Origin: Opitutaceae bacterium
Lineage (GTDB): Bacteria > Verrucomicrobiota > Verrucomicrobiia > Opitutales > Opitutaceae
Direction of reading: 5' to 3'
DNA: 64,000 nt
Assembly (NCBI GenBank): GCA_015075305.1
Contig: JABTUS010000003.1
Span: forward strand, 186,001-250,000
Position 1 is the stretch's first letter. The number at the start of each line of letters is the position of its first letter. Positions 1 to 4,140 of this stretch are shown piece after piece. The notes beneath the pieces were generated by a model, which saw nothing but the letters and a program-made list of their open reading frames with translations, made no database searches and was not told where the DNA came from. A program made the position numbers and the translations under genes.

Positions 1-585
1 GGTGCTGAGAATGCGGCTGCAGAGTTCGAGCGAGCGATCGTAGCTCGTCGAGAGCTCCCGATTCGCGACCGCAAGCGCCGCCTTCTGCTCCTCCAGATTC
101 CTGATCTGGCTGGAGAGCGCGGCGTTCGCGATGGTGAGCTGCTCATTGAGGCGGCTGGCTTCGGCGTGAAGCCGTTCATTTTCCGTGACGAGCTGGTGGC
201 GGGAGATGGCGTTCCTGACCGTGGCGGAAAGTTCCTCCCTGAGCCACGGTTTCGCCACAAAGCGGAAAATCTCACCCTTGTTGATCGCGTCGATGATCGT
301 CGGCAGCGACAGAACGGCCGTGATGAGAATGCGCGAGGCGAGAGGATTGAATTTCCGGGATTCGATCAGGAAATCGAGTCCGAGCATTTCCGGCATGCGC
401 TGGTCGGAAATGATGACGGCGAACTGCCGCGTGCGGAGAACCTCGAGCGCCTTCAGTGGATTGTCGCACGCGACCACCTGATACTTCTCGCGCTCGAGCG
501 TGTCCCGAAGCGCCGCGAGCACTATCGGCTCATCATCGACGATGAGCACGGAGCTGCCGACAGGCGTCGTGGATGGCGGGGTCAT
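1..585 (-). CDS. Response regulator receiver protein, C-terminus beyond window edge
   Basis: The 195 visible codons begin with a canonical receiver domain (residues about 8-125): the acidic DDE cluster in VLIVDDEP, the phospho-acceptor Asp in IISDQRMP, a TA at the switch position (ILITAV) and the conserved Lys in VAKPW. A coiled-coil linker follows (about 130-180, rich in E, Q, L and A), then a stretch (SLELCSRIL) that resembles the entry to an HD-GYP/HDOD-type output domain. That last point is only a guess because the gene runs off the left edge. Its ATG overlaps the stop of the upstream sensor kinase by 4 bases (ATGA), so the two are translationally coupled and probably partners. It is the last visible gene of the cheR-cheB-kinase operon. 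Confidence 0.85.
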   Translation of the reverse strand, partial: MTPPSTTPVGSSVLIVDDEPIVLAALRDTLEREKYQVVACDNPLKALEVLRTRQFAVIISDQRMPEMLGLDFLIESRKFNPLASRILITAVLSLPTIIDAINKGEIFRFVAKPWLREELSATVRNAISRHQLVTENERLHAEASRLNEQLTIANAALSSQIRNLEEQKAALAVANRELSTSYDRSLELCSRILST

Positions 586-2597
586 GGAATGCGAAGCAGT
601 TTTGCGAGCGCGTCCACAGCGTCCGGTTCCCTCGTGCCAGCCGGGAGAAACAGGTCAACCTGCGCCCGCAGGGCGCCCGTCTGCGCGCCGGCCTGGCTCG
701 AAAGGTGCAGCGCGAGCCGGAGTCCCGGGTGATCACGGCGCAGCTCGGCAAGGAAGACGCGCAGGGAGGTGTCCGGTTCATCCTGGCTCACGAAAACAAA
801 GTCCAGCCTGGCTCCCTCCTCGCGCAGGTGGCGCCGCGCGTGTTCGAGGGTCGCGATGGTGCGAATCGACCAGTCCCGTGAACGAAGCGCGTCCACCATC
901 GGGCCTTCGTCAGTCATGTCCCGCTCGAAATACAATCCGCGAATCGTGCGCGGGATGGCGGCCTCGCCTGGGATTGTCGGGGCGGAATGGTCGAGATCGA
1001 CCAGGGGAAGGACGAGCGCGATCTCGGTCCCGCGTCCGGCAGTGCTGCGGGCGGCAATCGTCCCCCCGCAGGATTCGGCAAAGAGCCGCGCGTGATAGAG
1101 TCCGAGTCCGGTGCCGCGCGCGGCATCCTTCGTGGTGAAGAAGGGATCGAAAATGCGCTCCAGGTGCGCCGGGAGGATCCCCATTCCATTGTCCGAAAAG
1201 GTGAGCATCACGGAATGGGTCTGAAGCGGCGGCACCGCGGGACTCGAACCCGGCGCGGGAGTCTGTCCGGCTGCAAGGGCGTGCAGCGCGATCCTGATGT
1301 CACCCGGACCGCGCAGCGCGTCGCGCGCATTCATCGCGAGATTCACCAGGGTCTGGCGGAACGCCGTCTCGTCGATGTAGACCGGCCATTCGCCGTCCTC
1401 CAGCGGACCGGCGAGCTGTGCGCCGCGTGGCAGGATGACCTTGAGCAGGTCGAGCTGCTCGCGCACGATTCGTCCGAGATTGACATACGTTTTTTCCCCG
1501 GAGGATTCACGGTTCAATTCGAGGATCTTCCGAAGCAGGCGCTGGGCCTGGCCGGCGTTCTCCTTGATGAGACCGAGGCCGTCCCGCAGGGGGTGACGGT
1601 TTGGCAGCGTGTTGTGATAGAGTTCACTCAGCGAAAAGATGCCGGTCATCACATTGCTGTAGTCCTGGAGCAGGCCGGTCGTGAGGGTTGAGAGTGACTC
1701 CTTCCATGCCCGGCTGTTCAGCCGGTGCTCGGCGATCTTCTGCCTCGTGATGTCGAGCCAGATGCCCTCGTGTCCCAGAAGGAGGCCGTCAGCGGTCCGC
1801 ACCGGGGTGCGGATGTCGAGCAGGTAGAGATAGGTTCCGGACTGGGGATTCAGGATGCGGTAGACCTGGGAAAAGGGTCGCTGCGCCGTGCGGTTGCGTT
1901 CGAGTTCGGCGTGAAAGGCGCGTTCGTCCGCCTCGTGGATCAGGCGCAGGAATGGCTGGCCGTTCTTCGCCAGAGGCTGTGGATGAATGCCGACGAGCGA
2001 TTCGAAACCGGGTCCGATTGACGCGAAGGAAAAGTCCGAGCGTTGGTGAAAAACCACGCCTGGAAGCAGGGTGAGCGTCTGGTCGAGGCGCGCCTCGACG
2101 GTGCGAAGCCGCAGGAAGATCCTGGCGAAGGACGACGGGTCGGGGGACAGATCGGCGAGGCCGAGATGCTTGAGTTCCGCCGGCGCTGCGAGCTCCGGGG
2201 TGAGGGTCACGGTCATCGCGTCTCCGAAACGCAGACGATGTAGGCCGAGCCCGATGCCCGGCTTGCCGGCGGTGAGTTCAGGCAGGAAGAGCGGAAGTTC
2301 GGATTCGAACAGGGAGCCGGGCAGCGCCCGCGCCCAGGCCGGCGAGACATCGGCGAGCGCCTGACGCAGGGAGCCGCCTTCCTCCGCCTTCGCAAAGAGC
2401 GAGTCGTCCCCGGAGATGCTCCTCGCCTGAATGCGATCCTGCGCGTCAATGATGAACTGGGCGCAGTTCAACGGTCCGCGCGGAGCGCCGCACACATCGG
2501 CGGCCCATGCCGGTGCCACGGATCGGTGCGCGGGAAGCGCGGGAGGCGAAGCGGGCGCTTCTGAAGGAATGGATGGCGCGAATTCAACCGTGGGCAT
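582..2597 (-). CDS. PAS sensor histidine kinase with Gln in place of the phospho-acceptor His, plus degenerate receiver-like C-terminus
   Basis: 671 residues from the ATG at 2597, which overlaps the cheB stop by 14 bases. A longer reading exists but its extra 60 residues are low-complexity shadow of cheB. The N-terminal 170 residues are unassigned. Residues about 175-290 look like a PAS/PAC sensor. A NtrB-type H-box region follows, but where families have HDFNN this protein has LQDYSN, so Gln311 (codon CAG at 1665-1667) occupies the phospho-acceptor site. The HATPase_c domain appears intact: N box LVNLAMNARDAL (417-428), G1 SDNGMGI, F box FDPFFTTK, G2 GTGLGL (495-500). Residues about 550-671 resemble a receiver fold whose Asp site is Ser604 (FVSQDEP). 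It could be a pseudokinase, an allosteric ATP-binding sensor, or rely on another phospho-acceptor. It is coupled to the response regulator downstream. Confidence 0.85.
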   Translation of the reverse strand: MPTVEFAPSIPSEAPASPPALPAHRSVAPAWAADVCGAPRGPLNCAQFIIDAQDRIQARSISGDDSLFAKAEEGGSLRQALADVSPAWARALPGSLFESELPLFLPELTAGKPGIGLGLHRLRFGDAMTVTLTPELAAPAELKHLGLADLSPDPSSFARIFLRLRTVEARLDQTLTLLPGVVFHQRSDFSFASIGPGFESLVGIHPQPLAKNGQPFLRLIHEADERAFHAELERNRTAQRPFSQVYRILNPQSGTYLYLLDIRTPVRTADGLLLGHEGIWLDITRQKIAEHRLNSRAWKESLSTLTTGLLQDYSNVMTGIFSLSELYHNTLPNRHPLRDGLGLIKENAGQAQRLLRKILELNRESSGEKTYVNLGRIVREQLDLLKVILPRGAQLAGPLEDGEWPVYIDETAFRQTLVNLAMNARDALRGPGDIRIALHALAAGQTPAPGSSPAVPPLQTHSVMLTFSDNGMGILPAHLERIFDPFFTTKDAARGTGLGLYHARLFAESCGGTIAARSTAGRGTEIALVLPLVDLDHSAPTIPGEAAIPRTIRGLYFERDMTDEGPMVDALRSRDWSIRTIATLEHARRHLREEGARLDFVFVSQDEPDTSLRVFLAELRRDHPGLRLALHLSSQAGAQTGALRAQVDLFLPAGTREPDAVDALAKLLRIP

Positions 2598-3297
2598 GTG
2601 CGGAAAGGGCTGGGCTACTGGTAGCCGGGGAGAAGGGATGCACGGCCGGTACCGTGCCGGCGCAGGAAATGAGGTGGGCGGCGATGCTTTCGAGCGGTAT
2701 GCGGTGCCGGGCTGCTCCGGTTTCCCATGCGGCGCGGGGCATGCCGTAGACCGCGGAGCTGGCTTCATCCTGGGCAAATGTCAGCGCACCCTTTTCGCGC
2801 AATCGCCGTAGTCCGTCGGCTCCGTCGCGGCCCATTCCCGTGAGCAATCCGGCGATGACGTGCGGGCCGGCTCTTTCGGCGGCTGATCTGAACAGGATGT
2901 CGACCGCGGGACGCTGGTGCCAGATGTGCGGCCCACCGACAACGCGGACGCAATAGCCTCCGGAGTCGCAGTCGACCAGCAGGTGATGGTTTCCGGGCGC
3001 AATGAGCGCAAGACCTGGAAGCAGCCGGTCGCCGTCAGCCGCCTCGCGCACGGCAATCCGGCACTGTGAGTCGAGCCGCTGGGCGAGGGCCCTGGAAAAC
3101 AGGGCGGGGATGTGCTGGACGATCGCGATCGGCGGGAAATCGGACGGCAGGCGGGGAAGGATTTTCTGCAGGGCATCGGTGCCGCCGGTTGACGCCCCGA
3201 GCAGGACCAGGCGGCGCGCCGCGTGCGGGAGCGGCGCTATGTTCCCGGCGGAAGCAAAGTTGGAGGCCTCTGTCACGCGAAGGTTGTGGTGCGCCAT
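2584..3297 (-). CDS. cheB: CheB-type protein-glutamate methylesterase, catalytic domain only
   Basis: 237 residues from ATG 3297 (a TTG two codons upstream is less likely). The catalytic triad of the CheB methylesterase family is visible: Ser36 in LGASTGGT, His62 in VQHIP, and Asp158 in GMGRDGADG. The usual N-terminal receiver domain is missing; only about 25 residues precede the esterase fold. The enzyme should therefore remove methyl groups from chemoreceptors without direct phosphorylation control, or be controlled by a partner such as the adjacent response regulator. It sits 15 bp after cheR and overlaps the kinase start, so cheR-cheB-kinase-regulator form one operon. Confidence 0.92.
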   Translation of the reverse strand: MAHHNLRVTEASNFASAGNIAPLPHAARRLVLLGASTGGTDALQKILPRLPSDFPPIAIVQHIPALFSRALAQRLDSQCRIAVREAADGDRLLPGLALIAPGNHHLLVDCDSGGYCVRVVGGPHIWHQRPAVDILFRSAAERAGPHVIAGLLTGMGRDGADGLRRLREKGALTFAQDEASSAVYGMPRAAWETGAARHRIPLESIAAHLISCAGTVPAVHPFSPATSSPALSAHAHG

Positions 3298-3312
3298 GGA
3301 CAATGAGCTTCG

Positions 3313-4140
3313 CTAGAGGGGGCTTCGGTAGACCGCGGACTCCACCTGCTCCAGATCGTGGCGGATTCCGGTGAGGCTTTCAGCATGCCCCACGATGAGA
3401 TAGCCTCCCGGCACGAGCAGATCGCCAAGTCGCCGCACGAGGTCCTGCCGGGTGGCCCGATCGAAATAGATCATGACGTTGCGGCAGAAGATCACGTGAA
3501 ACCGGTCCGAGAAGGGTGGCGGGCCTTCCAGCAGATTCATCTGCCGGAACGTGACGGATTCCTGGAAGCAGGATTTCACGCGAAAGTAGCCCTCCTGTGG
3601 TCCGAAGCCCTTCTGGAAACAGCTTCTCGCAAGCCGGGCCGGTACATTCTTCATGGACTCCTTCGAGTAGATGCCGACGCGAGCGCGCTGAAGAACGCGA
3701 TGGGAAATGTCCGTGGCCTCGATATGGACGGGCCAGGCGGGTTTGACATTCCCGAGCGCCCGCATCAGCGAAATGGCGATGGAGTAGGGTTCCTCACCCG
3801 TCGAGCAGGCCGCACACCAGACCTTGAATGCCGGCCACGCCTTTCCCTGGCGCAGGGCGATCATCTCAGGAACCACGGTCTCCGTGAGAAAGTCGAAATG
3901 CTTCGGTTCGCGGAAAAAGTAGGTGTGGTGAGTCGATATCGCGTCGATGAGATGCGACAACTCATCCCCTCCCGCCCTGCCCTGGAGGTAGCGGCAGTAC
4001 TCACCGATTGACGTCAGGTTCGTCGCCCTGAGCCGGTGTCCCAGCCGGGCGCTCACCAATTCCTTTTTTCGTGGCCCAAGATGGATGCGACTGTGCTGGT
4101 AAACCAGCTCCCGGATGTACTGATAATCGCGGTCGAGCAT
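3313..4140 (-). CDS. cheR: Chemoreceptor glutamate methyltransferase CheR
   Basis: 275 residues, normal for CheR. An all-alpha N-terminal domain (about 1-75) is followed by the SAM-dependent methyltransferase domain. Diagnostic blocks: THHTYFFREPKHF (70-82), the SAM-binding CAACSTGEEPYS (109-120), FCRNVMIYFD (218-227) and GHAESLTG (251-258). It methylates glutamates on methyl-accepting chemotaxis proteins and is antagonised by the CheB encoded immediately downstream. It starts at ATG 4140 and is transcribed divergently from the flgB operon, so chemotaxis and basal-body genes share an upstream region of about 240 bp. Confidence 0.96.
   Translation of the reverse strand: MLDRDYQYIRELVYQHSRIHLGPRKKELVSARLGHRLRATNLTSIGEYCRYLQGRAGGDELSHLIDAISTHHTYFFREPKHFDFLTETVVPEMIALRQGKAWPAFKVWCAACSTGEEPYSIAISLMRALGNVKPAWPVHIEATDISHRVLQRARVGIYSKESMKNVPARLARSCFQKGFGPQEGYFRVKSCFQESVTFRQMNLLEGPPPFSDRFHVIFCRNVMIYFDRATRQDLVRRLGDLLVPGGYLIVGHAESLTGIRHDLEQVESAVYRSPL

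What the first reader, a model, noticed from the sequence alone, without database searches (positions are those of the whole stretch)
582..2597. Histidine kinase lacking its phospho-acceptor His, with a receiver-like tail lacking its Asp
Where NtrB-type kinases have HDFNN, this protein has QDYSN; the codon at 1665-1667 is CAG (Gln311). All ATP-binding boxes (N, G1, F, G2) look intact. The C-terminal receiver-like segment has Ser604 at the phospho-Asp place. The gene is locked between cheB and a response regulator with an intact Asp. A conserved ATP-binding pseudokinase in a chemotaxis operon could act as an allosteric sensor or a phosphatase instead of a kinase.
Basis: partly seen in the sequence, partly recalled or inferred. 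Interest (0 to 1): 0.62.

Follow-up and report, generated by a model that had tools for sequence, protein, structure and literature searches.

The report
Flagellar-locus kinase missing its histidine
A sensor kinase beside the flagellar and chemotaxis genes of an Opitutaceae-like bacterium has lost the one amino acid it needs to phosphorylate itself, a loss its closest relatives seem to have suffered three separate times while the rest of the protein and its partner regulator stayed intact, so it probably now controls that partner by a route that is not phosphate donation.

Summary
Gln311 replaces the acceptor His in a PAS-HisKA-HATPase protein (minus strand, 582-2597). Of 76 orthologues across the class, 69 keep His. 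Six have Gln and one Asp, all inside one ten-member clade, on three branches. Codon models give His at the ancestors (posterior 0.87-0.99) and relaxed constraint at this site only in that clade. It is therefore neither an error nor an ancient pseudokinase, but a recent, probably threefold, loss. Everything else is kept: ATP boxes, the acidic +1 residue, Asn at +4 (the HisKA phosphatase residue) in this genome's subclade, and a helix-pair domain with dN/dS 0.01-0.05 after the loss. The partner, a receiver fused to a degenerate HD-GYP domain, is adjacent in most members and keeps its full phospho-acceptor site. A second hybrid kinase in the same locus also lacks His (and the +4 Asn). The Asp-less receiver tail is ancestral, hence unrelated. 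Best reading: a pseudo-histidine kinase that binds and probably dephosphorylates the partner under PAS and nucleotide control. No activity was measured. Pseudo-histidine kinases are known (DivL), so this is a new member; its value is near-identical His and Gln orthologues for a direct test.

The parts
582..2597 (-). HK1: His-less PAS-HisKA-HATPase-pseudoreceiver protein, 671 aa
   Evidence: ORF; Pfam PAS_3 and HATPase_c; AlphaFold model, pLDDT mostly over 90 in PAS, CA and tail domains; closest folds are sensor histidine kinases
1752..2060 (-). PAS domain (residues 180-282)
1512..1748 (-). DHp (HisKA) helix pair, residues 284-362; 91% identical to His-bearing orthologues G123 and G105
1665..1667 (-). 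Gln311 codon (CAG) at the phospho-acceptor position
1662..1664 (-). Asp312 (+1), invariant in 79 of 79 rows
1653..1655 (-). Asn315 (+4), equivalent of CrdS N375, the HisKA phosphatase residue
   Evidence: PMC3510030
1005..1490 (-). HATPase (CA) domain, residues 370-531, all boxes intact
585..941 (-). Receiver-like tail (residues 553-671), alternating beta-alpha receiver fold without the Asp (Ser604)
1..585 (-). Partner response regulator (RRHD), N-terminal part; full gene 424 aa in L038:9311-10585:-; intact receiver plus degenerate HD-GYP
2584..3303 (-). cheB (methylesterase domain)
3313..4140 (-). cheR
   Evidence: named from sequence and synteny, not scanned against Pfam

Best explanation
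HK1 descends from a bifunctional NtrB-like sensor kinase that served the adjacent receiver/HD-GYP regulator (RRHD) of the flagellar-chemotaxis locus. In the clade of this genome the His became dispensable and was lost, so HK1 cannot autophosphorylate there. It still dimerises, binds nucleotide, senses through PAS and docks RRHD. The most likely activity is a signal- and nucleotide-gated phosphatase of RRHD~P that uses Asn315, with the phosphoryl group supplied by another donor (another kinase, CheA where present, or a small-molecule donor). Shown: Gln at the site, intact boxes, constraint, pairing, recurrence. Inferred: no autophosphorylation, dimerisation and docking, phosphatase activity, identity of the donor.
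For: Only the acceptor is lost: D+1, +4 N/T/S and the ATP boxes are kept in all His-less members. DHp dN/dS is 0.009-0.054 in pairs wholly inside His-less clades. Own DHp is 91% identical to His-bearing G123. RRHD is adjacent in most loci across the class; its receiver D, T and K are invariant in 56 sequences and the acid pocket in all but one. In CrdS, an NtrB-like HisKA kinase, H371A keeps phosphatase activity (RR~P half-life 2.6 min against 0.7 wild type and 53.5 without kinase) while N375A (+4) loses it; N375T keeps part (PMC3510030). The +4 residue is N in this subclade and T in the Asp lineage. The other His-less kinase of the locus, HK2, lost +4 as well, so +4 is not simply carried along.
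Against: G140 and G007 have Ser at +4, not a documented phosphatase residue in what I read. Asp at +1, needed in CrdS for kinase but not phosphatase activity, is still invariant. His-to-Ala abolished phosphatase activity in PleC (PMC3510030), so the outcome of losing His varies. DivL, the best-studied case, has neither activity (PMC4211667). No biochemical data exist for this family, and the donor for RRHD is unknown.
Confidence: 0.47

Rival explanations
1. DivL-like or NifL-like sensor: HK1 neither phosphorylates nor dephosphorylates, but binds RRHD (perhaps RRHD~P) and passes on the result by protein contact, with PAS and nucleotide setting affinity.
For: DivL has Tyr at the site with all other boxes intact and no kinase or phosphatase activity, and binds DivK~P (PMC4211667). 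NifL-NifA is among the structural matches. Ser at +4 in G140/G007 fits loss of the phosphatase.
Against: +4 is N or T in the other five His-less members; the DHp domain around the site is the most constrained or among the most constrained parts.
Confidence: 0.25
2. Heterodimer partner: HK1 pairs with a His-bearing kinase and either trans-phosphorylates it or modulates it, as proposed for ChrS-HrrS.
For: Intact CA domain and invariant +1 acid; precedent of a ChrS pseudokinase with HrrS (PMC9491836).
Against: No close paralogue in the genome; the best other kinases are about 28-31% identical, and HK2 also lacks His.
Confidence: 0.13
3. Phosphorylation elsewhere: Gln311 HK1 still autophosphorylates on another residue (for example His328, 17 residues further along helix 1, or the Asp in G034).
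For: His328 is present in g1, G034, g10 and G033 members and the CA domain is intact.
Against: His328 is absent from several distant members that carry the normal His; it is far down the helix from the site the CA domain reaches in known kinases (inference from family knowledge).
Confidence: 0.06
4. Decay: the kinase is on its way out, and the loss has no function.
For: Several losses in one clade; locus shrunk in G140/G007; HK2 lost His too.
Against: dN/dS 0.03-0.10 for the compared region inside His-less clades, open frames, all boxes kept, place beside RRHD kept.
Confidence: 0.05

Closest known systems
DivL (Caulobacter and relatives), PMC4211667
   Same: PAS plus HisKA-HATPase with only the acceptor His replaced; works with a receiver protein; kinase activity not needed
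   Different: DivL's Tyr is conserved throughout its orthologues (Ala in one), its partner is stand-alone DivK and it signals through CckA; here Gln is recent, a minority state, and the partner gene is adjacent
CrdS/CrdA (Myxococcus), NtrB-like HisKA kinase, PMC3510030
   Same: Same HisKA motif order (acceptor, acid at +1, Asn at +4); its H371A mutant is a laboratory version of this loss and keeps phosphatase activity
   Different: Native CrdS has His and is a working kinase
NifL (Azotobacter/Klebsiella)
   Same: Nucleotide-binding histidine-kinase relative that works by protein contact (from general knowledge; structural match)
   Different: Partner is an AAA+ activator, not a receiver protein; no sequence test done here
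Receiver/HD-GYP regulators (RpfG type), for the partner RRHD
   Same: RRHD has a receiver and an HD-GYP-like domain
   Different: First His of the HD motif is Cys and the Lys is missing in this clade, so phosphodiesterase activity is doubtful

Membership tests
HisKA (NtrB-like) histidine kinase | Phospho-acceptor His in the DHp helix | tested here: not met
   Gln311, CAG
HisKA (NtrB-like) histidine kinase | DHp helix pair followed by HATPase_c with N, G1, F, G2 boxes | tested here: met
Pseudo-histidine kinase (DivL sense) | Acceptor His replaced while the HK fold is retained | tested here: met
Pseudo-histidine kinase (DivL sense) | Maintained by purifying selection after the loss | tested here: met
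   dN/dS 0.009-0.054 in DHp, 0.03-0.10 overall
Pseudo-histidine kinase (DivL sense) | No autokinase activity | not testable with these tools
   needs biochemistry
Pseudo-histidine kinase (DivL sense) | Non-His residue fixed across orthologues, as in DivL | tested here: not met
   69 of 76 orthologues have His
HisKA phosphatase | Asn or Thr at +4 from the acceptor | tested here: met
   Asn315; N in 4, T in 1, S in 2 of the seven His-less members
HisKA phosphatase | Dephosphorylates its partner receiver | not testable with these tools
   needs purified RRHD~P
Active HD-GYP phosphodiesterase (partner RRHD) | HD metal-ligand pair and following Lys | tested here: not met
   CDLGL in place of HDxGK; HHExxDGxGYP is kept

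The most novel reading that the evidence does not exclude
A sensor kinase turned, on three branches of one clade, into a dedicated phosphatase (or reader) of its own cis-encoded regulator, next to a second kinase in the same locus that lost both kinase and phosphatase residues, so that the flagellar regulator is run by two pseudo-kinases and a phosphodonor from outside the pair.
Probability: 0.3. Interest if true: 0.7.

Novelty: new member of a known kind. Interest (0 to 1): 0.46.

Why it matters
What a histidine kinase does after losing its His is known from very few cases. Here nature offers matched pairs: orthologues with His and with Gln whose DHp domains are 91% identical, with the same partner regulator next door. 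Comparing them (and the single-residue swaps) would show directly whether loss of the kinase leaves a phosphatase, a sensor or neither, and why the residue became dispensable in one clade.

Tried and rejected
Sequencing error: rejected (seven genomes, several codons). Ancient conserved pseudokinase: rejected (69 of 76 keep His). CheA take-over as the general reason for the loss: not supported, since CheA was not found in two Gln genomes (G007, G140) nor in two His genomes (G033, G048), and is present in other Gln and His genomes. Single loss plus regains: a two-state model with free reversal prefers it (lnL -10.3 against -13.9), but that model ignores that the Asp codon GAC is two steps from the Gln codons; codon models favour three losses. 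A regular expression mislabelled two His rows (G317, G289) as Gln in the labels, and masked the wrong residue in them, in the tree; one search shows His, and read the codons afresh on the same tree. NifL literature: titles listed, none read. Searches for a paper on this locus in Opitutaceae or Verrucomicrobia found none on it.

Full report
WHAT IS THERE. The gene runs on the minus strand from 2597 to 582 (671 aa). It overlaps cheB by 14 bp and the next gene by 4 bp. Pfam finds PAS and HATPase_c. The HisKA model is not listed for this protein but is, weakly, for the His-bearing orthologue G123 (E 0.0009). AlphaFold, with an alignment of 67 sequences, gives PAS 180-282, two long helices 284-330 and 338-362, a CA domain 370-531 and an alternating beta-alpha tail 553-667 of receiver type, mostly at pLDDT over 90; the first 160 residues are poorly modelled. 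The best solved folds are sensor histidine kinases. Gln311 lies in the first helix.

IS THE SUBSTITUTION REAL AND RARE. The genus (ten genomes held) has nine with an orthologue: this genome, G082, G055 and G169 have QD[YF]SN; G140 and G007 have QDFGS; G123, G105 and G183 have HDFSN. The nearest other genus, G034, has DDFDT. Searches of 252 genomes of the family, 372 of the order and 384 of the class (these sets overlap) gave 76 distinct sequences that were read: 69 His, 6 Gln, 1 Asp (three duplicate rows removed). A published survey puts missing His at 0.9% of HisKA domains (PMC12632262).

HOW OFTEN WAS IT LOST. On the protein tree the Gln rows of the genus fall in two separate clades, with His-bearing G183 and G105/G123 between them at 98/88 and 90/78 support (two rows mislabelled there, see Tried and rejected). 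Codon models at the site give His at the ancestors with posterior 0.87-0.90 (clade-specific rate) or 0.99 (single rate), that is, three losses: two to Gln, one to Asp. A clade-specific rate fits better by 7.5 log units, meaning the site is relaxed in this clade and all but frozen elsewhere. The clade was chosen after seeing the data, so this is descriptive. A two-state model with free reversal prefers one loss and regains, so the count is likely but not certain. If losses fell in proportion to branch length, all three in this clade would have probability about 0.001 (same caveat).

IS THE PROTEIN STILL UNDER SELECTION. Pairs that lie wholly inside His-less clades (G140-G007, G082-G055, G082-G169, own-G082, own-G169) give dN/dS 0.03-0.10 over residues 165-671 and 0.009-0.054 in DHp (simple counting method, some dS near saturation; the script stopped before the later pairs). 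The CA domain is no looser than in the His-bearing pair G123-G105, apart from own-G169. Own and G123 DHp domains are 91% identical over 79 residues. +1 Asp is invariant; +4 is Asn in 76 of the 79 rows, Thr in G034, Ser in G140 and G007; N, G1, F and G2 residues are as in His-bearing relatives.

THE PARTNER. The gene after HK1 encodes a receiver and an HD-GYP-like domain. It follows HK1 in most loci of the family and class, often with flgB-flgC-fliE-fliF in the opposite direction and cheR or cheB upstream where the stretch fetched is long enough; one group in the order has HK1 beside flgB without it. Its phospho-acceptor Asp, Thr and Lys are invariant in 56 sequences, and the acid-pocket residue in all but one. 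The HD-GYP core is degenerate: Cys-Asp for His-Asp in this clade, and Leu at the Lys position of HDxGK. The regulator is thus kept as a phosphate-controlled switch whose output is probably not phosphodiesterase activity.

THE SECOND KINASE. The same locus, outside the window, carries a hybrid kinase, HK2 (L038:6493-8556:-), with PAS, HATPase and an intact receiver. Its acceptor is Gln in this genome, G082, G055, G169 and G183 and Glu in G123, and its +4 residue is His or Ala instead of Asn. The homologues outside the genus that were read all have His. HK2 therefore lacks both kinase and phosphatase residues, whereas HK1 lost only the kinase residue. Other kinases lacking His occur in this genome too, so the loss is not confined to this locus.

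CHEMOTAXIS. CheA lies in the locus here but is not found in G007 and G140, which keep Gln-HK1 and its regulator beside the flagellar genes; it is also not found in the His-bearing G033 and G048. Most of these are draft genomes. So HK1 does not seem to depend on CheA in general.

MECHANISM. His cannot be bypassed for phosphotransfer (PMC12632262), so Gln311 HK1 should not be a phosphate donor. In CrdS the His is largely dispensable for phosphatase activity and +4 Asn essential (PMC3510030); in PleC the His was needed; DivL has neither activity. Retained +4 Asn/Thr, CA domain and regulator favour a phosphatase; Ser at +4 in G140 and G007, and the kept +1 acid, are against a simple version. I give about 0.47 to the phosphatase reading, 0.25 to a DivL-like or NifL-like reader, and less to a heterodimer, another phosphosite or decay. 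Nothing was measured.

NOVELTY. Pseudo-histidine kinases are an established category, so this is a new member. What is unusual is the recent, repeated loss beside a fully preserved cognate regulator, and two His-less kinases in one locus.

Noticed in passing
L038:6493-8556:- (own genome C3:182496-184556, just outside the window): Hybrid kinase HK2 in the same che locus lacks its acceptor His (QELNH) and the +4 Asn, with an intact C-terminal receiver; Gln or Glu in all readable members of the genus, His in the homologues read outside it.
   Followed up: yes
L316:364-2307:+ (own genome C5:304731-305696): Another NtrB-like hybrid kinase with Ser at the acceptor position (GIASDYNNLL), +4 Asn and receiver Asp intact.
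   Followed up: partly
L318:1468-3054:- (own genome C14, near 13085): Kinase-like protein whose acceptor helix reads LTEAAALELKSAL, with no His in the expected place.
   Followed up: no
L338:190-2121:+ (own genome C11, near 130430): Kinase-like protein that keeps His (GIAHDLQRIL) but has broken F and G2 boxes: the reverse kind of pseudokinase.
   Followed up: no
window 1-585 minus strand, continuing in L038:9311-10585:-: Response regulator with an intact receiver and a degenerate HD-GYP domain (CDLGL), degenerate in different ways across the class.
   Followed up: yes
L045 and L044 (G007, G140): Small-genome members keep flgB-flgC-fliE-fliF, a diverged cheR, Gln-HK1 and its regulator, but cheB, cheD and HK2 were not found beside them in the stretches read, and no CheA was found in the genomes.
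   Followed up: partly
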